From: Aduncisulcus paluster
Lineage: Eukaryota > Fornicata
Length of the DNA: 33,438 nt
Direction: 5' to 3'
Assembly (NCBI GenBank): GCA_024181965.1
Contig: BQXS01010884.1
Coordinates: forward strand, 8,402-41,839
This document shows, piece after piece, positions 1,470-21,413 of this stretch. Numbering within the stretch: position 1 is the stretch's first letter; every line of letters starts with the position of its first letter. The notes below the pieces were generated by a model. The model saw nothing but the letters and a program-made list of their open reading frames with translations, did not search any database and was not told the DNA's origin. A program made the translations under genes and the position numbers.

Positions 1470-2690
1470 AATGGAAGGTAACTCAAGTCTTGTATAAATA
1501 TTTGACTCCAAAAACAACCAAGAACTCGATATTGTATTTGGAATGTTCCCATGACTATAAAAGACAATTGTTTCATTTCGTTTGCTCTCCGATTTTGTAA
1601 AAACAAGAGAGTAGAAACAGTCTGTTTCAAACAGAATTTTTTTATTTTGGTTCGAGTCCCACATTCCTTTCCTTCAACTTCACACACAATACAATATTCG
1701 CCAAATCAATAGGAAGGAAGTGCCGCTTAAATTCATGTTCAGGCCAAGTAAATTCATACTTCTTGGATGTATTCTCTTACCATCAGTCGAGTGTGTGAAA
1801 GTGAGGAGATGGTGAACTGAAATCCTCATTCACACACACATATATATAAGCACCTTTCATGGGACTAGGTGATGGGAAAGGGATAGAAAGATTGGATAAC
1901 CAAACAAACCATTCCCCTTTTAACGTTCTTATAGCAATAAAAAGAATTCGTTGAACATCACCCTAAAGTCGTAATAGATTGCTTTGCACGGTGGAATTTA
2001 AGTATTATTTAAAATTGACCCTTAAACGTAATTCTCGACCAGTAGAATCGATCAATTTCCAATCTTGTAACTTGTTCTTCCTCTTTCTTTCATATACATA
2101 CGGAAAAAGGAAGCAATTTGTTGAAGACTGTGTTGAATCAAGCACAATGATATTACAATACATAAAATGAGCTTTTGGAGCACATTCGACAGGCTCTGAC
2201 ACCATGAGTTGAACTTTATCCGTGAACGTGACATTCTTATAGCAAACCATAGTTCCTCTTTGCTTCTCGGGCTAATATTTCTAAGGCTTAGGGGTTTCTT
2301 CTCGTTGTAATAAAAACAAGGGACCAGATTCTAAAATACCTCTCATCTCTTCCTTTCCCTGTAATCTCACATAAAATAACATCAGGAAGATTAACAGGAA
2401 GGAAATACGAGTTACGATCACGATCCAATACTGTTCTCTACTGTCTTACTACAATACGAAATATAGGATGAAAATTGAATTGTTTGATTGTTTTCTCACC
2501 CTTTGAAGATGTCAAAGTGAAGAAAAGATGTGATGTAGACAAAGTAACAAGTATGTAGACAAATAAAAGCGCCTTTCATTGGAGAAGAGGAAGAGAAAGG
2601 AATGGAGATATGTGTTCAACACCCCAATAAGTTATTGGGACAGACAGACCATTATACTCTCCTTTCATCATATCTTAACAGCATACAACA
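1470..2690 (-). pseudogene. Decayed paralogue of the two-repeat protein at 2876-4027
   Basis: Two blocks match the intact neighbour at nucleotide level, in the same order and strand. About 1475-1940 resembles the C-terminal repeat (roughly 2890-3300): both share 'ttggaatgttcccatg', 'aatcaataggaaggaagtgc', 'attcatacttcttggatgt' and 'gcacctttcatgggactagg'. About 2310-2690 resembles the N-terminal repeat (roughly 3540-3850), with shared 'ctcttcctttccctgtaatc' and 'actctcctttcatcat'. Stops and indels interrupt every frame, so no full product is possible. The middle (about 1950-2270) does not match the intact gene. It carries an 81-aa ATG frame on the minus strand (2005-2250) that may be a remnant of a further divergent domain or chance. 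The arrangement points to tandem gene duplication followed by decay. Confidence 0.75.
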
Positions 2691-2875
2691 CCAACATAAC
2701 GAAGAGAATTTCATTATTGAATAATGATTATTCTTAACCAAAATAATGGTAAATGCACTCAGAGCTAAGGAGTTAGAATCCCCATAATGAAGATGCATTT
2801 CCAACCAGAAAACTCAATATTTCTCAGACGAAGTCCTCCTTTTCCCAGATGATTTATTCCACAAGATGTCAGATC

Positions 2876-4027
2876 CTATCCAAAAAAGCATGTATTCTCA
2901 AGTTTTGTCATGATATCATCTTTGGAATGTTCCCATGGCAGAAGGGATAATAGTTCACTCACAACTATTTCTTCTGGCATAGTAAATACAAGGGAGTTGA
3001 TCCAAAAATTGCTACTAGTCTTATCAAACCATGTTCCTTTCCCTTCAATCTCACATATCACAACATTATCTAAATCAATAGGAAGGAAGTGCCATTCATA
3101 TGAATGTTTAGGCCTTGTGAATTCATACTTCTTGGATGTCTTCTTACCATCACAATCAGTGAAAGTGAAGAGAAGAGAGGGTGAACTATAACAGTTATTC
3201 ACACAGATATAAGCACCTTTCATGGGACTAGGTAAAGGGAAAGGGATGGAAAGATGGGATAAGGATACAAAATATTCCCCTTTTAACATTCTTTGTGCAT
3301 CTGAACTCTGATCATAATACTTAGATTCCTTACTCAGCGAACCTCTCTTGCACTTAATCATTGAGAATAAAGGATCTACAAGCTTTGGATCATCTCGTGG
3401 AATGGGAATAGAATCTCTACCTTTAGATTCTTCATCTCCTTCCTTAACAAACTCTGCTTTCACAACTGGAGCTTCAGACCATAGTTTTTCTCTGGCTTCA
3501 CGAGCTTTGATTTCTTCATGAGTTTCTTCTCTACTAATGAAAACGAGGGATTGCATGTTAAAATACTCTTCCTCTCTTCCTTTCCCTGTAATCTCACACA
3601 AAACAACATCAGGGAGATCAACAGGAAGGAAACACCAATGCAAACCTTCAAATTCAGGAAATTCATATTTCTTGGATGTTTTATCACCTTTTGAAGATGT
3701 AAGAGTGAAGGTAAGATGTGATGGAGGTGAATAGTAACTATATAGACAGATATAAGCTCCTTTCATTGGGGAAGATGATGAAGAGAAAGGAATCGAGATA
3801 TGGGTAAACAATCCAGCATTAAACTCTCCTTTCATCATCTTTTGTGCTTTAACACTTTGATCGTACTCTTTGTCATCTTCTTTCTCCGTTCCATCTATTG
3901 CTGTGATAGTTGGGATCTCTGAACTCTTAATATTCGGGGAATCTCTAGGAATTGGACAGCAATTAAAAATATATCCTTCATGAATAAACTCTGGTTTTAC
4001 AATTTGTATTTCGGTGGAAGAACTCAT
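2876..4027 (-). CDS. Two-repeat protein with 'PMKGAYIC' repeats, function unknown
   Basis: A 383-residue protein. I start it at the ATG at 4027, not the in-frame TTG six bases upstream. It holds two homologous units of about 110 residues, near 56-166 and 237-350. Each runs YDQS-x(3)-AQ(K/R)M(M/L)KGE(F/Y), then (I/L)SIPF, SPMKGAYIC, a polar loop, K(K/T)TSKKYEF, W-x-FLP(I/V)DL, VV(L/I)CEI-x-GKG and SLVF. A charged linker joins them, and a 'PIPRD-P' motif precedes each unit. The alternating strands suggest a beta-sandwich. There is no signal peptide or membrane segment, so it is probably cytosolic. I do not recognise the family. A decayed copy lies immediately downstream in the gene's sense direction, which implies a locally expanding, lineage-specific family. 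Confidence 0.75.
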   Translation of the reverse strand: MSSSTEIQIVKPEFIHEGYIFNCCPIPRDSPNIKSSEIPTITAIDGTEKEDDKEYDQSVKAQKMMKGEFNAGLFTHISIPFSSSSSPMKGAYICLYSYYSPPSHLTFTLTSSKGDKTSKKYEFPEFEGLHWCFLPVDLPDVVLCEITGKGREEEYFNMQSLVFISREETHEEIKAREAREKLWSEAPVVKAEFVKEGDEESKGRDSIPIPRDDPKLVDPLFSMIKCKRGSLSKESKYYDQSSDAQRMLKGEYFVSLSHLSIPFPLPSPMKGAYICVNNCYSSPSLLFTFTDCDGKKTSKKYEFTRPKHSYEWHFLPIDLDNVVICEIEGKGTWFDKTSSNFWINSLVFTMPEEIVVSELLSLLPWEHSKDDIMTKLENTCFFG

Positions 4028-9114: not shown

Positions 9115-12100
9115 TTAAAATAGATCCAATTCTTTGCCTTCCGTATCTCCAAGAGGAATGACTTGAGAATAAGTGTGGTCGAGGGAAAGGAGGAGCTTAT
9201 CTCTCCTTCTTGAATGGCCTCTCTCTGCTGAAACGATATTTATAGCAACATAGAACTCATGATCTGCAGAAGAGAGGAGAACAAAACTCACAGGAATCTT
9301 TATGCATGAAAATGCATTTAATTCCATCCATTTTCTCATTTCTCCCTTGCTATTTTTAGTACCACAAGCGATTACATCCTCATCAAAGCAAAATACAGAA
9401 ATACAGAGTGACAATAGATAGTGTGATTGATTCCTTACAATAATATTTCCAACAATACGGTCAGATGTTTTCTTGGAACAAAAAGAAATGTTAATTGGGT
9501 TTCCAAGAATTTTACAAAGAACCTTACTGGTTATACAAATGGGGAAATCTTGGACTTTGACACCATCCAAAACAAGATTTGACTTCTTGCAAAGAATCTT
9601 CCGGCATTCACTTTCAAGAATCTGTCCAATTTTCTCAAACTCTTCCAAGATATCGCGATCAAATTTAAATGTTTCATCCAAACCTAATTTTAGAACATGA
9701 GAAATATCATCTTTTGACAAAGCTAATGGAAGATAGAATTGAATTGAAGAAGAAGGTGTGAGAAGGACAACATCTGAAGAATGGGAGATAGCTCTGGCTT
9801 TTACATATGTTGGTGTCGATTGAGGGTTTGTTACAGTAAATCTAAGTGAATTGGAAACATCAAGAATTGAATTGTGGATTTGAACGGAATCTTCAACAGG
9901 AATCTTGATTCTTATTGCTGTATCAAAAGAGTGATGTTTTCTTTCTCTTGACGATTGTTGGACCAATCTTGAAGCAGTAATTTGGATCCCAAGCTCTGAA
10001 GCAATATAAGGGACAAACTCAATCAAGATCGTCCCAACGCTTCCTCTCTCCCTCTTTCCTTTGTCACTTGAGATGATTTCCGCAGAACAATGATGTTTGG
10101 AGGAATTCAGGATAGAAATGCATTTAATGGTAACATCCGCACTGACTGTGAAGTGAAGACAAAGAGAGGCGACATTTCGAGGTCTTGATGGTGGCAAATG
10201 GGATATTTCAACATCTTCACCGTTCATCTGGCCGTTTTTGTGGAAATGGACGTGAGAAACAGGGGGAATTATGATGATAGGATATGATTTGATTGGGGAA
10301 TGGATGATAGAGGAGGAAGAAAGATCAATGAGCTTAACGCCAACAATTTCTCCAAATACCTCACGGGAAATATCAGATGTAATACCAACTGGAATGAAAG
10401 AAACTGTTGAAGTGGATTGGTAGGAAGCTGAGAGAGAAACAAAACCTGTAGCAGGAATTATAATCTCTTTCTTAACTATTTTAGTCTTTGCATCAAGGCT
10501 GGCATCAAGAAGTTGAATAACAACACCGATAACATTCAATTGGGTTCCAACATGATATCTTTTCCACTGAAATCTGATCGGAATGGTCTCACCTTCAGGG
10601 AGTAAAGGAGCTTCACGAACTTCTGGAAAACATATTATAAATGTACTATTCCCCATGCCAATTCCGACATCAACACCAGTGATTGAAATATATTCGACTA
10701 AAGAAAGAGATACATCAGAATCAGAATCTATTTTTAGACATTCCCAAGGATGATATTCTTGAATATGATGGGCTTCTGGCTTGTTTGGATGAGTTGAAAA
10801 CAGAACAAACTTAAAAGGACTAGGACAGGCTGTGATATGAAAGGAATATTCGTGTATAAAATTCATCCAGACTTTCTCATCATGGAGACCCATTTCCTCG
10901 GCCAATAATATTGGAATTTCACTTGCTATTCCTTCAAAAACGCGTGAACAGAAAGCATACACAAGGAAAGATAATCGTTTGTGAGGGGAACGGACCAGTA
11001 AAAGAAGGATTCGAGCCAGACCACAAAATGTCCACAAAACTTGCCTAAATTCAGGAGCATGGGATAAGGCATTTGGAAGCGAACTTTCAATATATTTATC
11101 GCACACAGAATGGCAAATGGAATTTATAGAATCGCGACACGAAGAAAAAACATCCAAATGCTCTTGATAAGAAGCCATATGATGATCATTCATTATTTGG
11201 GCTCTTCTTAACTTTAACAAGGAAAGAGTAAGAGGAAAATCATGAAGTTGCTCCCTATTTTTCTCACATTCATTCAAGAGACCAAGAGTAGTGTATACCA
11301 ATTCTTCTTCTTTTATCTTGACTTCACGAAGTTTTTTTTCCGCCAATTCCCTGCCCTTTTCCTTTGCCTCCAGTTTTTTAGCTAGTTCTTCTTTTTTTTC
11401 TTTCGATTCTGCCTTTAATTTTGTGTCAGCTATTTGCTTCGTTATTTCGGCTATTTGCTTCGTTATTTCGGCATCATCCTTGGCTATTTCTTCTTCCATC
11501 TTTCTTTTAAATTCGGCAAATGGAGCAAAACCTTGAGAATAGAAAATACATGCTTTAGTTTCAGCAGCAAACACAAGGGAGATATCAAGATTATCGTCTT
11601 TAGGTTGTTCCATATATATCTTGAGAAAGTTGAGGGCAAGACTATGTAAATGCAACAGAAAACAAACATCGGCTACAACTTTCATCGCCCTAAACTTTCT
11701 GTTTGTGCGGAGGTGCTGCTGCATTACTGTTTTGTTCTCTGAGGTCGAGGATATCTTTAATTCGGCCTTAACATCACCATGGGGAGTAAAGATATCACAT
11801 GGAAGCCATACGGCACTATTGGATATGTTTTCATATAATAATGCACTAATAATAAGAGTGTTTGTGACTTTGGATGCAACTTCTTGCATCAAAGTTGGAA
11901 GTTCTTCGGAAGAGAGGAGGCAAACGTCAATACTAGGTTTTCTAGGTAAATTAGGTTCCAAACTACATGAAGATTTGGTGAAATACTCATCTAAAACATC
12001 AAAATCACAACAAACAAGGTCTGTAGATTCAACAAGGATAGGCTTGTAATCATCTTCATCATATCCATCAATCCAGATATATATTGGAATTGGAAACATT

Positions 12101-12981: not shown

Positions 12982-13516
12982 TTAGAATATTATTGGTGTC
13001 GGACCACATATTTTTCTAAGAACAAATATTGTGATGATGGCCAATATCGTCAGCCCAAGAGTAAATATTATTAGTCGAATTTCGTAAGATGAAAGGAATA
13101 GAAATTCAGAGTTATATGAATTAAGAGATACTGAAAATACATCATCTAAGCAACCAGAAATATATTCTTCACTCGCTTGATAACTTGATTGGGTGAGGGA
13201 AGGGCATTGATCACACACAGAAAACCCTTCTGTTTGGAAGGAAAAGGCATAGTCTGACAAACAGGATTCAATTAGATTATGATTTGAGGATGAAATGGAA
13301 ACTGATGATGCTGAAATAGGTGAAGAGAGGTCACTAATATGAATTATAAATATATTCATCTCAGGAATTTTAAAAATATAGAAATCATAATCAAGGGAGC
13401 ACGTCGAAGTAAATGAAACGATAGAATAACTGATCGTATCATCTGATACAACATAAAAATCCGACAACATGCTATCTTCGACAATATAATAGTCATAACA
13501 CTGGCAAATACTTGAA

Positions 13517-13874
13517 CACTGAACATTTGAATATTTTACAATGATTTCAGCACTTACAAGGCTTTGAAAAACACATGGATCAAGTGCACCCAGAAAGATC
13601 TGCTCTTCAGAGGCAGTAGCTTCCGTGATAAGCATTGTATGGGAAGATATTGATGACTGAAGAACGGTGGCAGAATCGGTGATAACATATGTAATGGAAG
13701 AAGAGGAATCGATCAGAGAAGAACTTGCAAAGACATCAGAAATTGTATCGATGCTCAGGCCAATGGTAGCAACACCGATCATTTGTTCATCGAATAAGAT
13801 TTTCTGACTCATGTTAAAACCTGTAGTTTCAAATATATTTGTTGGACCCGTAATAATTAAATCTTCGACAGAAT
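13517..13874 (+). repeat. 358-bp direct repeat, copy 1
   Basis: Identical by eye to 13875-14232 and directly adjacent, with an offset of exactly 358 bases. Because 358 is not a multiple of three, the copy shifts the receptor frame. It begins CACTGAACATTTG and ends TCTTCGACAGAAT. Confidence 0.95.
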
Positions 13875-14232
13875 CACTGAACATTTGAATATTTTACAAT
13901 GATTTCAGCACTTACAAGGCTTTGAAAAACACATGGATCAAGTGCACCCAGAAAGATCTGCTCTTCAGAGGCAGTAGCTTCCGTGATAAGCATTGTATGG
14001 GAAGATATTGATGACTGAAGAACGGTGGCAGAATCGGTGATAACATATGTAATGGAAGAAGAGGAATCGATCAGAGAAGAACTTGCAAAGACATCAGAAA
14101 TTGTATCGATGCTCAGGCCAATGGTAGCAACACCGATCATTTGTTCATCGAATAAGATTTTCTGACTCATGTTAAAACCTGTAGTTTCAAATATATTTGT
14201 TGGACCCGTAATAATTAAATCTTCGACAGAAT
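13875..14232 (+). repeat. 358-bp direct repeat, copy 2
   Basis: Second tandem copy of 13517-13874. The unique sequence just to its right (14233-14253) reappears in the gap region at 20432-20452. Confidence 0.95.
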
Positions 14233-16992
14233 GTTTGGTTTGGATGAACCATGGAGTTTCGAGTGGAGAATAGCTCGTGTCAAAGGATTCTCCGGGAAAA
14301 GAAATAAAAATGCCCGATAATCCAGAAACACCAATGGAAAGAACATTTGAATCCCATTCATCAAGGTCAGAAAAGGAAGAGATGAAGGTTGGAGATAGCA
14401 AGGAGAATATATTCGCTTCAATAATTGGTGTTTCATAGAAAATCGAGGCGTTTTCATTCGAGGGGTTTGAATAATTTCTCGACAAATCATCTGAAGCCTT
14501 TTGGAAGAAATCTTCTTCAATCAAGAGAGGATTGAGAAGAAATGGGCTATCTTCTCCAAAAATATCATTAATTACATCAAAATTGTGATCGCTCGGAGGG
14601 ACGTGAGTGGCTGTGTGAGTTCTCATTAGTTGAATATTCGATCGTAATGTATCTTCTGGGTAAACATTATACCCAAGAATATAATCATATTTGGTCTGCA
14701 ACGACTCGACAGCTTGGCTGATGTATCCGTAAACAAGATCACAGGAACAGAATTTCCCCTCGATAAGAGGATTCTCAACACCGATATCCTCACACCGATG
14801 GATTGGTGGTTGCAAAATACTGATTGAATAATCAACACTAGCAAGGGAAAATACAATGATAATATCATATTTATGGATATATTTCCAGAAATACGTTGTA
14901 GAAACATCTTGAAATCTTCCATCATATAAATATCGAATGGTATCAACAGTAATGTTTCCTTGGTCAATATTCAAAGAATAAGTAGAACCAAAAATAGAAT
15001 CTGAGAAAGTAGATCCTCCTGTTGATGTTGTACCAGATAAATGAAACTGCTCAAGATCATCAATTTGGATTTGCTGAGGAGTAATTCCAGTTGAATTCAA
15101 GATGGGATGAGAAAGAATAGTTCCATCTGGTCTAAAAATAGAAAAATATGACATATCTGATATTGACGGATGAGAAACAAGTGAGATAAGCTGTTTTGAG
15201 TCGAGTTGCATGAAGATAGTTACGAAAGAGTCACCAGTGTATACAAGCTTTGATAAGACAATACTCTGCCTGTTGTATAACATTCCATGGGTGGGTACCA
15301 TAACAACAGGAAGAAGTTTGGAGGAATAAAAAGGATCGCAAAGAGTATCTCCGTTCTCATTCACAAGATATTCTGACGGACAATCGACTAGCAAACGAAA
15401 TAATCGAAAGGCATGCTGTGTGAAGAATTTCGTCATCCTGTCGTCAATTCCTTTTAATATCGACGACTCAGACCCGTGATACCATAAATTAAGCCCGTCA
15501 AGCACACCAGATATCTCATCTATATTTTGATGGACTGAACCTCCGCCCAATTCGTGATACTTTGAGACATCAATAAGTTCATAAATACCGTTGCGTTCCT
15601 TGACGATCCTTCTGAGGGTCATTTCGGTGTTGTCAATGTAATGAATACCAGAAACGAGCCCATTGTCCTTTGCGAATGAAGCTAAAGAAACACGATAAAA
15701 TATTGGGATTATTGGATTGTATGTATTGTGAATATCAATATTTGAATAGAAAAACGATGAAAATGAGTGTGGAAAGAGGGAACCAAGAGAAATACAAATA
15801 ATATAGAGAGGAGATGGTGAAACAAGGGGTCGATTGGATGAAATATTAAACATTTTGGAGGGGCTTACATTTATATTCGCACTTCCGAGAGGTGATGATG
15901 CAAGTTTCTCACGTAAAACAGTCTGAGCGCCAACATTAGAAGTAAGAGAGGAGAATAGAAGGGAAGCGGCGTCTTGAAACGCTTGAGAAATAGAAGATTG
16001 AGCGTCATTCACAAAGGAAGAGAAGGAAAGATCTTGAACAGTGAGAGTTTGAAGAGAGGAAATATTCATACCCTCAAAATAATCTGCGAGAGAAAGTCTG
16101 GCTTTGGAAACAGTCAAAGGGGTGGCTTTGGCCAATCCTCGAAAATGAGTGCACGAATCGGATGAAGCTTCTAACGATCCATTGTATTCACCATCGGTGG
16201 ATAATATGGTGAAATAGTCGAGAGGAGTGAGTCCAGATAATATCATGTCGGAAATATCACGCAGAATGTTGATAGCGGAGGTTACTAGACCATCTTCTGA
16301 ATCAAGAAAATATTTAATCGTCTCATCGATAGTTGTGTCGATGATAATGGCAATACCTCGTCTAAAACCAGAAAATGAAGACGATTTTATGCTCAGGGAG
16401 GATGCTGGATCATATTTGGCTCTATAGCTAACATCTACTGGTAATGATGGATGGAGAAAAGCAGCGGCGGGATAGTACAACATCGATGAGTTGGAAATAA
16501 CTCCAGATAAACTCACAACCGAACTAGTCTCATCAGAACACTCAACTTCCATAGATTCTGAAATATCACATGAAGGGGATTGATTCGAAACAAAAGATGA
16601 TCTAAGAGCTTCAACAATGGAAGAAGAAGAAAAGAAATCTTCTTTTTTATCGCAATCTGTGGAAAAGGTTGGATTACAGTAAAGAGTGGCATTATCAGAT
16701 CGGGGAATAGAAACGATATCGGAATCCATAAAAAAAGAATATGAATTAATTTCTGAAGATATTTCATCTTCATCTAACATTTCACTGTAAAAATGCAATT
16801 TTGTTGTTTCATCAGAATCGGGTTGAGTTATGGATGTTTCAATGTCATAAATTGATTTTAAAGCGGAATCAACACAAGATGATAATGAAGATTCCGCAAT
16901 GGTTACTATACTGCTTCCATCACACGAATATGTATTAATTACACTTTGTTCTGCAATATCAACAAAAGAATCGATTGGAATAAATGAATTGA

Positions 16993-17467
16993 ATGTTGAT
17001 TTTAATTGAGTATATAAAGAATATGAACTTTCTGCAGCAGAATCAAGCGATTCCAAGGTTAAAGCATAAAATAGGGAAAATACAACTAAAAATATGATGA
17101 ACTCCTGCATAATATTTATATTATTAAAGTTATTGAAAATAGAGGTGTTAAAAATAGCTCTATTTTATGTAGAAAGAGAACAAACATGGAACTTGTCATT
17201 TGTGGTTTCGAAATATTCCAAGATAATCGATGGTTTGACGATTTATCCATGTGCGAAGAAATGGATGAGAAGGAATTTATTATCAAAAGGGGGCTCTATT
17301 TTTCAAAATATGCAGAAATTTATGTTGCTACAGAGATTGCGACGAGAAGAACAGTTGTGCTGAAGGATCTATTTTATATAAGTGACGGGAAAGTCGATGA
17401 AAAGATGTTAGTCCTTGTCAAAAGGGAGATAAATATTCATTCGGCACTTTCTCACCCGAATATAGTC
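16993..17467 (+). repeat. 475-bp direct repeat, copy 1
   Basis: Identical by eye to 17468-17942, with an offset of exactly 475 bases. It covers the first codons of the receptor gene (minus strand), the whole divergent promoter, and the first 94 codons of the kinase gene (plus strand). Confidence 0.95.
17111..17185. promoter_or_regulatory. 75-bp divergent promoter between receptor and kinase genes
   Basis: Only 75 bases separate the receptor ATG (17110, minus) from the kinase ATG (17186, plus). A second identical copy lies at 17586-17660 because of the 475-bp duplication. Both genes must start transcription within this space or inside each other, so shared regulation is likely. No named element is recognisable. 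Confidence 0.5.
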
Positions 17468-17572
17468 ATGTTGATTTTAATTGAGTATATAAAGAATATG
17501 AACTTTCTGCAGCAGAATCAAGCGATTCCAAGGTTAAAGCATAAAATAGGGAAAATACAACTAAAAATATGA
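17186..17572 (+). pseudogene. Truncated duplicate of the kinase 5' end
   Basis: The first 94 residues are identical to the intact kinase at 17661. The frame then crosses the duplication junction at 17467/17468 and reads antisense through the repeated start of the receptor gene for about 34 unrelated residues. It lacks the whole C-lobe, including the catalytic loop and DFG. It is a by-product of the 475-bp duplication and probably does not exist in the real genome if that duplication is an assembly error. Confidence 0.8.
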
Positions 17573-17942
17573 TGAACTCCTGCATAATATTTATATTATT
17601 AAAGTTATTGAAAATAGAGGTGTTAAAAATAGCTCTATTTTATGTAGAAAGAGAACAAACATGGAACTTGTCATTTGTGGTTTCGAAATATTCCAAGATA
17701 ATCGATGGTTTGACGATTTATCCATGTGCGAAGAAATGGATGAGAAGGAATTTATTATCAAAAGGGGGCTCTATTTTTCAAAATATGCAGAAATTTATGT
17801 TGCTACAGAGATTGCGACGAGAAGAACAGTTGTGCTGAAGGATCTATTTTATATAAGTGACGGGAAAGTCGATGAAAAGATGTTAGTCCTTGTCAAAAGG
17901 GAGATAAATATTCATTCGGCACTTTCTCACCCGAATATAGTC
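17468..17942 (+). repeat. 475-bp direct repeat, copy 2
   Basis: Second tandem copy of 16993-17467. The unique sequence just to its right (17943-17955, CACTTTTATGGAA) reappears in the gap region at 20419-20431. Confidence 0.95.
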
Positions 17943-18554
17943 CACTTTTATGGAATGATTCATGAAGATGATCGTTATACGTTGGTACTAGAATATTGTA
18001 AGCATGGTGATTTAGGGCATAAATATAATCGTGATGGGTTATTATCAACAGAACTCATAAAGGAAGTCGTAAAAGGGATTGGGCGAGCATTGGAATATTG
18101 TCATAAAAAGGGAATAATACATGGGGATATCAAACCAGAAAATATATTTTTAGATTCGGAGAATTGTGTAAAATTAGGGGATTTTGGAGGAGCAGTCTTA
18201 TTATCTTCAAAAGAACAAAAGAAAGATATTTATGCTCATGGAACAGCTGAATTTCTCCCTCCAGAGGTGTTGGTCGTTGAAAAGAAATTCGAACTGACTG
18301 AAAAGGCTGATATATGGTCATTTGGAGTTACTCTTATTGAAATCATGAGTGGAGAAAACCCTTTCTCTTCGGATGAAGGAAAAGATGAAATATACAGAAA
18401 AATAGTTGAAGATGATATAATATTTGAGGATTTTGATTGCATAGATGAATTGGGAATGGATTTAATAGAAAAAATGCTTGAAAAGGATCCACAACAAAGA
18501 ATTGGGCTTTCTGAAATTCTAACACATCCATTTCTTCTACATTCTGAAAAATAA
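17661..18554 (+). CDS. Protein kinase, Ser/Thr type, non-RD (HGD) with degenerate glycine loop
   Basis: A 297-residue single-domain kinase. The glycine loop region 'RGLYFSKYAEIYVA' (about 35-48) keeps only one glycine. Lys60 in VVLKD is the likely ATP lysine and Glu81 its partner. The catalytic loop reads HGDIKPEN (154-161), so Arg of HRD is Gly. DFG is at 174-176, the P+1 region is 'GTAEFLPPEVL' with PPE for APE at 200-202, DIWSFG is at 217-222, and Arg280 lies in the final subdomain. Asp156 and Asn161 remain, so catalysis is plausible. Loss of the HRD arginine suggests that it is not controlled by classical activation-loop phosphorylation. It is head-to-head with the alpha2delta-like receptor gene. 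A NEK/Aurora/CAMK-type assignment cannot be made by eye. Confidence 0.9.
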   Translation: MELVICGFEIFQDNRWFDDLSMCEEMDEKEFIIKRGLYFSKYAEIYVATEIATRRTVVLKDLFYISDGKVDEKMLVLVKREINIHSALSHPNIVHFYGMIHEDDRYTLVLEYCKHGDLGHKYNRDGLLSTELIKEVVKGIGRALEYCHKKGIIHGDIKPENIFLDSENCVKLGDFGGAVLLSSKEQKKDIYAHGTAEFLPPEVLVVEKKFELTEKADIWSFGVTLIEIMSGENPFSSDEGKDEIYRKIVEDDIIFEDFDCIDELGMDLIEKMLEKDPQQRIGLSEILTHPFLLHSEK

Positions 18555-18738
18555 TTCAATATTGGTTTGATATTGACATTAATTTGTGTTTTAATATTGA
18601 AATAAGACGAGAATACGAGGAAAATTTTCAAGGGTGTTTGTGTAGCATCATGCTAGGATGATCCTATTGTAAAGGAGAATAATTAAAAATCATAAGCTGT
18701 TTTTAAAGGTACTATTAAAGCGGAAAATTGTCATTGGT

Positions 18739-19023
18739 ATGTCACTAAAAATGCTGTTCTTGAGCAAAACACTGAAAGTTGATTTCTCTGTGATTAATAT
18801 GGAATCAAAAACGAAAGAGGAACTGATTGAGGAAAATCAACATTTACAATCTCAAATTGATCATTTAACAAAGGAATTAAAGATGTCAAAAGAAACTCAC
18901 ATCCCTTCACTCCAAACTTTGGTGAAGAAGCAAGCAGAACTTATTTCGACACTAAAAATGAAATGTATCTGTCTTGAATCATGTATAAAGGATGAGGATA
19001 TTATTGATGTATTGAAAGAATGA
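18739..19023 (+). CDS. Small coiled-coil protein
   Basis: A 94-residue frame from the ATG at 18739. An internal ATG at 18799 (MESKTKEEL) gives 74 residues and is a better start, since the 20 residues before it look like translated leader. From there the protein is a charged helix with heptad-like Leu/Ile spacing (ELIEENQHLQSQIDHLTKEL), followed by a second helix and a short acidic tail. There are no membrane segments and no known family. It lies after the kinase gene on the same strand, 94 bases from the convergent membrane-protein gene. Confidence 0.55.
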   Translation: MSLKMLFLSKTLKVDFSVINMESKTKEELIEENQHLQSQIDHLTKELKMSKETHIPSLQTLVKKQAELISTLKMKCICLESCIKDEDIIDVLKE

Positions 19024-19117
19024 CTCATAATAATACTTTCTCGCAACTTTTCGTTCAATATTATCTGCATTCTATTGCTAAAAAATATATTTATTGTTGA
19101 CTATAAAGAATATTATA

Positions 19118-19948
19118 TTAAACGAGTTGAGAAGGGGCCACATCAAAATCCTTCTCAATTATTTCGGCCACGGAGGCTCCGATATCGTCTTCTCCACCAA
19201 GAAGATCCCCATTGTTACCATCTCTTCGCTCCCCTCTTTCTCTCATCTGTGACGGACCTCCACTTGCATTCATCCGCTTCCACTTAATGGCTTCATAAAG
19301 GATAGCAACACATCCACCAGTTACAATGCAGAATGGCTGAAAAATAAAAAGCGAGAGCAAAAATCCGGTGTTATGCCCCAATGTCTCAAATAATAGGGCT
19401 GGGAGACCAGAAATAAATACAATAACACACAGGAGAAGCATTTGAAGAAATCCATTGAGCGGACGCAAAGAAAACATCAAAGAATACCAAGAATTCTTCA
19501 AACATATTATAATGTCCATTGAAGGATTTTCTATCTTATAAAAGACAGCAGGAACAAATCCAGCAATTGTCAGGAATATGCCAACACCCAAACCTACTAT
19601 CCCTGATATTGAGGCAAAAAGGCAAAGAACCATAAAAAATACTATTTCTAGATATTTGTATCTTAATAACTCAAATGATGAAGACCATAAATGAGTTTTA
19701 GTTTCTCTCAAGATCAAATCGAAAATATTTTTTAGAAGGGAGGCAAATAAAGGTAACATCAGGAAAATTCCACATAGAATAGAAATGGAAATGGGTATCC
19801 ATGCTACTGATTCTGGCAATAACCAGAAAAACTCCAGTAAGATGATAGGAGCATAAAATTCAAGAAGAAGAATAGATAGGTGGGAAAATTTGGTCTTATA
19901 TACTTGAAATACTTCAGAAAATATGCTTTTTACCGATAAATCGCTCAT
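19118..19948 (-). CDS. Six-TM membrane protein, DUF975/GPDPase-membrane-domain-like
   Basis: A 276-residue protein with about six hydrophobic segments (roughly 24-44, 47-70, 98-120, 121-137, 164-187, 193-220). A cytosolic-looking, Gly/Arg/Glu-rich C-terminal tail of about 55 residues follows. The N-terminal amphipathic stretch 'SVKSIFSEVFQVYKTKF' and the element 'P-x-x-F-Y-K-I-E-N-P-S-M-D-I-x(3)-LKNSW' (about 133-154) match the pattern of bacterial YciC/DUF975 and glycerophosphodiesterase membrane-domain proteins, where a conserved 'ALkrSw' follows the fourth segment. The function of those proteins is poorly known. No catalytic motif is visible, so transport or scaffolding in an internal or plasma membrane is only a guess. 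Confidence 0.7.
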   Translation of the reverse strand: MSDLSVKSIFSEVFQVYKTKFSHLSILLLEFYAPIILLEFFWLLPESVAWIPISISILCGIFLMLPLFASLLKNIFDLILRETKTHLWSSSFELLRYKYLEIVFFMVLCLFASISGIVGLGVGIFLTIAGFVPAVFYKIENPSMDIIICLKNSWYSLMFSLRPLNGFLQMLLLCVIVFISGLPALLFETLGHNTGFLLSLFIFQPFCIVTGGCVAILYEAIKWKRMNASGGPSQMRERGERRDGNNGDLLGGEDDIGASVAEIIEKDFDVAPSQLV

Positions 19949-20264
19949 GATAGTTCCCTATTACGTGAAGGTGGATGAAAAAGAAATGTGTGCTGTTAAA
20001 GAAGGAGAAAATTTAATTTACGGGAATAATATAAAAATATGTTCCCAATAAGGAATGAATAATCAGACGAAAAAAATAGGGTGGCACTATTTCCCGAAGA
20101 AAAAGAATTTTCGTTTGTATGACCTCAGAGTAGTAAATCACGAGCCACGAAAAGAGGAAATATATGATTTATTTAGGGTATGGCGTATTTTTAGATTATT
20201 CTACTTTCTCAGCATCCTTATCGTATGCACCGACGGGTTTTGTAAAATCGCAATTCCTACGCGA

Positions 20265-20418
20265 AGCTGCTGGATCCATGGCAAAACCATCAAGTTGACC
20301 TTTGTACCCTTTAGTTGTTCTACCTTCTTTTTGGGCAGCTTCAGCCCAGAAAGATATCGATCCAACTGTTTCCAAATCTTGAGCTGATTTTTTTGAGATA
20401 GTTTGAGAATGAGGGGGG
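20265..20418 (+). repeat. 154-bp direct repeat, copy 1
   Basis: Starts AGCTGCTGGATCC and ends in a run of six G. It matches 20473-20626 with an offset of 208 bases. The G run is six here and seven in copy 2. Confidence 0.95.
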
Positions 20419-20452
20419 CACTTTTATGGAAGTTTGGTTTGGATGAACCATG
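20419..20452 (+). other. Junction made of two displaced sequence tags
   Basis: Bases 20419-20431 equal 17943-17955, and 20432-20452 equal 14233-14253. Those are exactly the first bases to the right of the 475-bp and 358-bp duplications. Nothing else lies between the repeat copy and the N run. Confidence 0.9.
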
Positions 20453-20472
20453 NNNNNNNNNNNNNNNNNNNN
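20453..20472. other. Assembly gap (20 N)
   Basis: Twenty unknown bases, a round number that suggests a placeholder rather than a measured gap. The flanks are copies of each other, so no sequence may actually be missing. Confidence 0.98.
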
Positions 20473-20626
20473 AGCTGCTGGATCCATGGCAAAACCATCA
20501 AGTTGACCTTTGTACCCTTTAGTTGTTCTACCTTCTTTTTGGGCAGCTTCAGCCCAGAAAGATATCGATCCAACTGTTTCCAAATCTTGAGCTGATTTTT
20601 TTGAGATAGTTTGAGAATGAGGGGGG
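20473..20626 (+). repeat. 154-bp direct repeat, copy 2
   Basis: Begins directly after the N run and repeats 20265-20418. It encodes the same C-terminal segment (about 'KSAQDLETVGSISFWAEAA' to 'GFAMDPAA') of the minus-strand hypothetical protein. Confidence 0.95.
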
Positions 20627-21090
20627 GTGGAAATTACCTCTTCTTTATCTTTTTCAACAGAATCTTTAATAAAGGATAAAATAGGAACATTCGATTTTGT
20701 TTTTGCTTTACCATGAATAGAATGAGAAAAAGAAATAGTAGGATGACTTGCTTCAATTCTATGATGATGTTGTTCCTCCATACGTTTATCTTCAGCTTGT
20801 ATACGGTCCATGGCTAATCTCATTAAATCATCATCTTCTATTTTTTGAGCAGGAAAGACATCACGAGGCTTGTGTTGCTCTCCAGTGAATGTTGATCTGA
20901 GAGTACTATCGAAATGCATTGTATAATCATGTTGGGCAGATATGGCAACTTCTTTTAATCGGATCCCGGATTTTTCTACTTTTTCTTTTTCAAGGGAATA
21001 GGCCTCATTTTCTTGCCAAAATCCAATTTTTGTTGGATTTGGTCGTTTTTGATTGTAAGATTGTGCTCCTAATGTTAGGTGAAGGGACAT

Positions 21091-21413
21091 TTTTGGACAA
21101 AAATGAAATATTTTTCGTAACTCTCGAGGCGCTCCGTAAATTGAAAACTTACATGAGAATAATGATATTATACTATTTTAATAGACCAAATATTTTTCCT
21201 TAATTTTGTGAATCTAGCTCAAGGTATTTTAAAAATCACTCACTTTTTCATGGCTATTATTTCGGAAGAAAAATGCTATATTCAGAGTTTACAAGGAGTA
21301 TATTAGAAATAATAGTAAGATATGAAATATTAATAGGGTACGACCTTAGATCAATCTTTGATGGGTTTTTGCACGTTTTAGTTCTTACTTTTTTCTTTTA
21401 AGTATCATTCAAA
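21091..21413. other. Divergent intergenic spacer
   Basis: AT-rich spacer between the minus-strand gap gene and the plus-strand small ORF. No gene, RNA or repeat is visible. It probably carries the promoter of the gap gene. Confidence 0.4.

What the first reader, a model, noticed from the sequence alone, without database searches (positions are those of the whole stretch)
20419..20452. Junction before the N gap is built from the exact right flanks of two distant duplications
The 34 bases between repeat copy 1 and the Ns are a 13-base copy of 17943-17955 followed by a 21-base copy of 14233-14253. Each tag begins at the very first base after the 475-bp and 358-bp tandem duplications. Chance cannot account for both boundary-exact matches. 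All three sites therefore share one cause, most simply a gap-closing or contig-joining fault that recorded overlap flanks. A biological template-switching event is a much less likely alternative.
Basis: seen in the sequence. Interest (0 to 1): 0.75.

Follow-up and report, generated by a model that had tools for sequence, protein, structure and literature searches.

The report
Misplaced contig ends in genome assembly
Two exact tandem duplications and a strange 34-base tag beside a gap are best explained as one assembly error, in which overlapping contigs were spliced into each other and their leftover ends pushed downstream, so they are probably not a feature of the organism's DNA.

Summary
The window is from Aduncisulcus paluster, a free-living flagellate, assembled with MaSuRCA from ~500-bp Illumina fragments. 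Proposed mechanism: contigs A-B-C-D truly overlap by 379, 488 and 154 bp. The joiner missed this, spliced B into A 21 bases before A's end and C into B 13 bases before B's end, and pushed the leftover ends right, last in first out, up to the gap before D. This nesting reproduces window 13001-21200; other orderings tried do not. Near-exact, size-capped (154-497 bp) duplications recur at eight loci in 131 kb of this genome, both 20-N gaps seen are flanked by one, and reading frames and public gene models behave as if the sites were single copy. Against: three duplications in two wholly read contigs show no displaced ends. The software step is inferred; reads were not available.

The parts
13517..13874 (.). 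copy 1 of the 358-bp tandem duplication; in the model, the end part of contig A
   Evidence: exact repeat
13875..14232 (.). copy 2 of the 358-bp duplication; in the model, the start of contig B. Junction 13874|13875 has no microhomology
14233..14253 (+). source of the 21-nt tag: first bases after the 358-bp duplication, so the A/B overlap would be 379 bp
16993..17467 (.). copy 1 of the 475-bp tandem duplication; in the model, the end part of contig B
17468..17942 (.). copy 2 of the 475-bp duplication; in the model, the start of contig C. Junction 17467|17468 has no microhomology
17943..17955 (+). source of the 13-nt tag: first bases after the 475-bp duplication, so the B/C overlap would be 488 bp
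20265..20418 (.). copy 1 of the 154-bp repeat; end of contig C in the model
20419..20431 (+). 13-nt tag, in the model the displaced last bases of contig B
20432..20452 (+). 21-nt tag, in the model the displaced last bases of contig A
20453..20472 (.). gap of exactly 20 N
   Evidence: a second 20-N gap of the same kind lies in contig C124
20473..20626 (.). copy 2 of the 154-bp repeat; start of contig D in the model
12982..17110 (-). probably one coding sequence, split in two by the 358-bp duplication (ORFs 13874-17110 and 12982-13884 read the same residues through the repeat, in register)
   Evidence: public models P0241 and P0242
20341..21090 (-). ORF that runs through the 154-bp repeat, gap and tag; copy 1 in the matching frame carries its sequence on to a stop
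17661..18554 (+). intact protein kinase gene; copy 1 of the 475-bp duplication holds only a truncated 5' piece of it (from 17186)

Best explanation
It is a contig-joining artefact of a short-read assembly. The true sequence is covered by four contigs A, B, C, D whose ends overlap by 379, 488 and 154 bp. The joiner did not find these overlaps. For A/B and B/C it acted on a much smaller nominal overlap (21 and 13 bases) and placed the next contig at that point inside the end of the previous one. Instead of discarding or merging the last 21 bases of A and 13 bases of B, it kept them, pushed to the right of everything inserted: A minus 21, B minus 13, C, then B's last 13, then A's last 21. The C/D junction was treated as an ordinary gap and written as 20 N, with its 154-bp overlap left on both sides. 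Shown: the exact matches, their order, a second 20-N gap with the same kind of flanks, other such duplications in the same assembly, and the assembler named in print. Inferred: the contig identities, the nominal overlaps, and the step in the software that does the nesting.
For: (1) The nesting rule reproduces window 13001-21200 exactly. Of six orderings run, two (equivalent) match; tails queued in the order met, tails overwritten, plain concatenation, and left-to-right insertion counted from the growing end do not. The contigs were defined to end in the tags, so this tests order and position, not the existence of the tails. (2) Self-comparison of 131,158 bases of this genome (11 pieces, window included; same strand, alignments of 60 bases or more) shows eight loci of near direct repeats with shared blocks of 154-497 bp: 358, 475, 154 in the window; 306 and 207 in C1; 495 in C2; 344 in C124; a 427/467 triple in C200. 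They are exact or within one indel; BLAST lists the C1 rows at 98-99% because it extends into similar flanks, and one C200 row at 95.5% because it bridges copies of unequal length whose shared blocks are exact. No other row has more than 80.5% identity; the eight remaining rows are 67-80% identical at offsets of 399-1913 bases. Short-period arrays in C3 and C126 were set aside. (3) 2 of 2 20-N gaps seen are flanked by terminal duplication: 154 bp, and 344 bp with a one-base difference in a T run. (4) C124 has no tandem duplication and no tag at its gap, as the model predicts (30,000 of 31,826 bases read). (5) The ORFs on both sides of the 358-bp duplication are in register through it, and the ORF entering the 154-bp repeat is carried on through copy 1 to a stop. 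Public models: P0241 ends at the duplication junction; P0242 (NCBI ADUPG1_008178) starts inside copy 1 and is fused to the next ORF. (6) The genome paper (PMC9933649; announcement text read) gives 150-bp paired reads from DNA sheared to ~500 bp, assembled with MaSuRCA v3.3.3. Another paper (PMC5737279, passages) states that Celera Assembler is part of the standard MaSuRCA pipeline, followed by its gap closer. A ~500-bp fragment would explain a ceiling near 500 bp on missed overlaps (inference).
Against: Displaced tails are seen at one place only. Contigs C1 and C2 were read whole and hold three exact tandem duplications without a displaced tail (one 10-base match flush with the C1 207-bp duplication lies at 11067, beside neither an end nor a second flank, and is taken as chance). 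Their junctions differ too: 4, 3 and 2 nt of microhomology, and in C1 the right flank matches the unit start at 16 of 24 positions in both cases (about 1e-4 each by a random control). Both C1 duplications are in frame inside one 1313-codon ORF, as real duplications could be. So the assembly either handles missed overlaps in more than one way, or some of these are genuine. The software code, contig files and reads were not available. The 20-N minimum gap and the ~20-base missed-overlap constant of Celera Assembler are recalled, not from a call.
Confidence: 0.93

Rival explanations
1. Artefact of another make: the contigs were joined by one program, leaving plain unmerged overlaps, and a later gap-closing or consensus step wrote the trimmed ends into the next open gap.
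For: A gap closer follows Celera Assembler in the MaSuRCA pipeline (PMC5737279 passages), and the tags sit directly against an open gap.
Against: It needs a buffer of trimmed ends kept over two junctions and written out in reverse order; nested insertion gives this order at once.
Confidence: 0.05
2. Real biology: chained template switching or end joining with templated filler copied two stretches twice and inserted two short pieces at a third break.
For: Short templated insertions beside rearrangements are a known outcome of such repair (own knowledge; papers holding these terms seen as a listing only). Junction microhomology and, in C1, homeology occur at duplications elsewhere in the same assembly.
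Against: Both window duplication junctions have 0 nt of microhomology. Both inserts start flush with duplication edges, which no repair model that I know requires. The third site is an unclosed gap with a 154-bp repeat on both sides. Two of the three events damage ORFs. No ageing series of such duplications is seen in the 131 kb examined.
Confidence: 0.015
3. The two tandem duplications are real and only the tag and gap are an artefact.
For: The 475-bp duplication leaves an intact kinase gene and an intact 5' end of the neighbouring gene, so it is tolerable.
Against: The tags begin at the edges of exactly these two duplications, so one cause most likely makes both; the 358-bp one splits an ORF.
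Confidence: 0.005

Closest known systems
Duplicated overlapping contigs (Kelley and Salzberg 2010, PMC2864568, passages)
   Same: Neighbouring contigs whose ends overlap are both kept, giving a false duplication; the 154-bp site and the C124 gap have this form.
   Different: Theirs come from divergent haplotypes on separate contigs; here the copies are identical, two of the three junctions have no gap, and the contig ends are displaced. They say that duplications within one contig are rarely mis-assembled.
Homotype false duplication (Vertebrate Genomes Project, PMC8081667, passages)
   Same: At contig boundaries, about as long as the reads, one example traced to an assembler bug.
   Different: No displaced contig ends in the passages seen; long-read assembler.
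Artifactual tandem duplications from negative gaps, as removed by BisCoT (PMC8389630, passages)
   Same: Artifactual tandem duplication introduced during scaffolding, described there as a negative gap.
   Different: Arises in optical-map scaffolding; no nested displaced ends in the passages seen.

Membership tests
False duplication from unmerged contig overlap | Copies (nearly) identical | tested here: met
   358, 475 and 154 bp at 100%
False duplication from unmerged contig overlap | Lies at a contig boundary (gap) | tested here: inconclusive
   met at the 154-bp site (20-N gap); the two tandem sites have no gap, so their contig boundaries are inferred
False duplication from unmerged contig overlap | Length bounded by read or fragment length | tested here: met
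   154-497 bp at eight loci against ~500-bp fragments (PMC9933649)
False duplication from unmerged contig overlap | Half read depth per copy and no spanning reads | not testable with these tools
Template-switch or end-joining rearrangement with templated insertion | Microhomology at the junctions (usual, not universal) | tested here: not met
   0 nt at both tandem junctions of the window
Template-switch or end-joining rearrangement with templated insertion | Continuous sequence through the third junction | tested here: not met
   the tag ends in a 20-N gap followed by a restart of the 154-bp repeat

The most novel reading that the evidence does not exclude
The organism, a fornicate in whose relative Carpediemonas canonical DNA-processing complexes were reported missing (title only, in the reference list seen; that the protist of the title is Carpediemonas is recalled), really makes exact 200-500-bp tandem duplications all over its genome by frequent backward template switching, and the ends left behind at each switch are inserted, last in first out, at a later break.
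Probability: 0.015. Interest if true: 0.85.

Novelty: not a real feature. Interest (0 to 1): 0.1.

Why it matters
It matters for users of this draft genome: false tandem duplications and displaced contig ends split or fuse gene models (P0241 and P0242) and would inflate counts of duplicates. In the sequence read here near-exact duplications of this kind stand at eight loci in 131 kb; outside the window, which was chosen for them, at five in 97.7 kb. The nested-tail signature is also a handy marker: a short tag beside an N gap that matches the right flanks of upstream tandem duplications points to a splice-in joining fault without any reads.

Tried and rejected
Tritrichomonas foetus was my first guess for the organism; dropped when P0242 named Aduncisulcus paluster. 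Search with the Rpt5-like protein: in the 120 listed of 7,997 hits, the others are 55-65% identical, no close genome. Kinase search: in the 120 listed of 459 hits, only distant kinases besides the window's own. Search with the 1078-residue ORF: two hits, both on the window's own contig. Displaced tails in C1, C2 and C200, right and left flanks: no tail found; isolated 10-base matches and one 13-base match (left flank in C1, not flush with the duplication) were seen, one 10-base match in C1 and one reverse-strand 10-base match in C200 being flush with a duplication edge. C200 was read for 17,000 of 19,859 bases. Similarity between the right flanks (which hold the tag sequences) and the starts of the duplicated units in the window: 4 of 24 and 9 of 24 identical, no more than chance. 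Papers on Celera Assembler with 20-N or negative gaps: two listed, passages of one read (PMC3158087), which speak of negative gaps in another assembler and not of this fault. A search for MaSuRCA with duplication-artefact terms gave three papers; in the passages shown of one (PMC5508607, 12 of 18 places) nothing matched. Passages of PMC5518131 were of no use. The MaSuRCA paper itself is not held. I found no print report of nested displaced contig ends in the listings; these searches are narrow and do not show that none exists.

Full report
Observation. Every coordinate in the finding holds. The window has two perfect tandem duplications (13517-14232, 2 x 358; 16993-17942, 2 x 475), a perfect 154-bp direct repeat split by a tag and a gap (20265-20418 and 20473-20626), a 34-nt tag (20419-20452) and a gap of exactly 20 N. 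The tag is tiled exactly by 17943-17955 and 14233-14253, the first bases to the right of the two tandem duplications, with no base over and none short. The 34-mer occurs once in the assembly held. Chance is excluded by the boundary-exactness (expected about 4e-17), although 10 of 31,277 other 34-base stretches can also be tiled by two pieces that recur somewhere.

Origin. The window is the right part of a contig in a eukaryotic assembly (G000:C125:8402-41839; 7,088,625 bases in 397 contigs held). Proteins include a proteasomal AAA ATPase, a NIF-type phosphatase and a protein kinase. A gene model that overlaps the 358-bp duplication is in the public protein set as ADUPG1_008178 of Aduncisulcus paluster, on a contig listed as 47,055 bases, the same listed length as for the window's kinase, Rpt5-like and 1060-residue proteins, and it maps to the window residue for residue. 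A. paluster is a Carpediemonas-like fornicate. Its genome paper (PMC9933649; announcement text read, part 1 of 2, the rest being references) reports 150-bp paired Illumina reads from DNA sheared to about 500 bp, assembled with MaSuRCA v3.3.3 into 29.4 Mb in 25,863 contigs, with 40.4% of BUSCO genes found. That MaSuRCA makes super-reads and that Celera Assembler and then a gap closer are part of its standard pipeline is stated in PMC5737279 (passages; version 1.9.2), and the first two in PMC5691383 (passages; version 3.2.1).

Mechanism. Let A end 21 bases beyond the 358-bp repeat, B begin with that repeat and end 13 bases beyond the 475-bp repeat, C begin with the 475-bp repeat and end with the 154-bp repeat, and D begin with the 154-bp repeat. 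The true overlaps are then 379, 488 and 154 bp. If each next contig is inserted n bases before the end of the previous one (n = 21, then 13) and the cut-off end is kept, the result is A without its last 21, B without its last 13, C, B's 13, A's 21; adding 20 N and D gives window 13001-21200 exactly. Queuing the ends in the order met, overwriting them, concatenating the contigs, or inserting left to right counted from the growing end do not. The model explains four things at once: why the duplications have blunt edges, why the tags start flush with them, why the tag order is 13 then 21, and why the tags stand between C and the first unclosed gap. It cannot by itself show that A and B ended where I put them.

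The same kind of fault elsewhere. In 131,158 bases of this genome (11 pieces of contigs, window included) self-comparison (same strand, alignments of 60 bases or more) finds eight loci of near direct repeats with shared blocks of 154 to 497 bp: three in the window, two in C1, one in C2, one in C124 and a triple in C200. The blocks are exact, or in C124 exact but for one base of a T run; the copies in C200 were checked again. BLAST lists the C1 rows at 98-99% and one C200 row at 95.5%, for the reasons given in the For line. The other eight rows are 67-80% identical. Short-period arrays were set aside. Real tandem duplications would be expected to show a spread of ages and no ceiling near the 500-bp fragment size (inference). 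Both 20-N gaps in the sample are flanked by terminal duplications, 154 bp and 344 bp. C124, with no tandem duplication in the 30,000 of 31,826 bases read, has no tag at its gap.

Genes. The ORFs 13874-17110 and 12982-13884 (minus strand) read the same residues through the 358-bp repeat and are in register when the offset of 358 is taken out; the stop of the first lies on the junction itself. The public gene set shows the effect: P0241 ends at the junction, and P0242 starts inside copy 1 and is joined to the next ORF through a called intron of 333 bases. At the gap, the ORF 20341-21090 enters copy 2 of the 154-bp repeat, and copy 1 in the matching frame continues to a stop. The 475-bp duplication leaves the kinase intact and adds a truncated 5' piece of it.

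What speaks against. The displaced tails are a single case. In C1 and C2, both read to the end, three exact tandem duplications have no displaced tail; their junctions carry 4, 3 and 2 nt of microhomology, and in C1 the flank resembles the unit start at 16 of 24 bases twice, with both duplications in frame in one long ORF. These could be joins made on a spurious short overlap, or real duplications. The end of C200 could not be read. No reads were available.

Comparison. The nearest known kinds are false duplications from overlapping contig ends: duplicated overlapping contigs (PMC2864568 passages), homotype false duplications, at contig boundaries and about read length, one example traced to an assembler bug (PMC8081667 passages), and artifactual tandem duplications described as negative gaps (PMC8389630 passages). 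[quoted passage not shown] The nested displacement of contig ends is a detail that I did not find in those passages. It is a curiosity of software, not of biology, and the finding is scored low.

Noticed in passing
L006 (contig C1) 4355-4970 and 5801-6217: Two exact in-frame tandem duplications (306 and 207 bp) in one 1313-codon ORF, each with a right flank resembling the unit start (16 of 24 bases); artefact joins on spurious short overlaps or real homeology-mediated duplications.
   Followed up: partly
L008 (contig C2) 7209-8200: Exact 495-bp tandem duplication over a gene boundary, 2 nt of microhomology at the junction, no displaced tail found in the whole contig.
   Followed up: partly
L021 (contig C200) 3992-5354: Three copies of a 427/467-bp unit, the first one shorter; looks like a small contig of about 467 bp placed between two larger ones that both contain it.
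   Followed up: partly
L012 254-960 (contig C124 10254-10960): 20-N gap flanked by a 344/343-bp terminal duplication that differs by one T in a homopolymer run.
   Followed up: yes
20413-20418 and 20621-20627: Contig C in the model ends after six G of a run that has seven G in copy 2, so the contig may have broken at a homopolymer.
   Followed up: no
1528-3865: Diverged repeats (67-79% over the longer stretches) with offsets of about 543-1913 bases, mostly in coding sequence; an old repeat, unlike the exact duplications.
   Followed up: no
whole contig C125: The protein collection lists the contig as 47,055 bases, the held genome copy as 41,839 with the first 8,401 withheld; the difference was not explained.
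   Followed up: no
window 13005-12673 (minus strand): The public model P0242 joins two neighbouring ORFs through a called intron of 333 bases; it may be a mis-fusion, possibly helped by the false duplication.
   Followed up: partly
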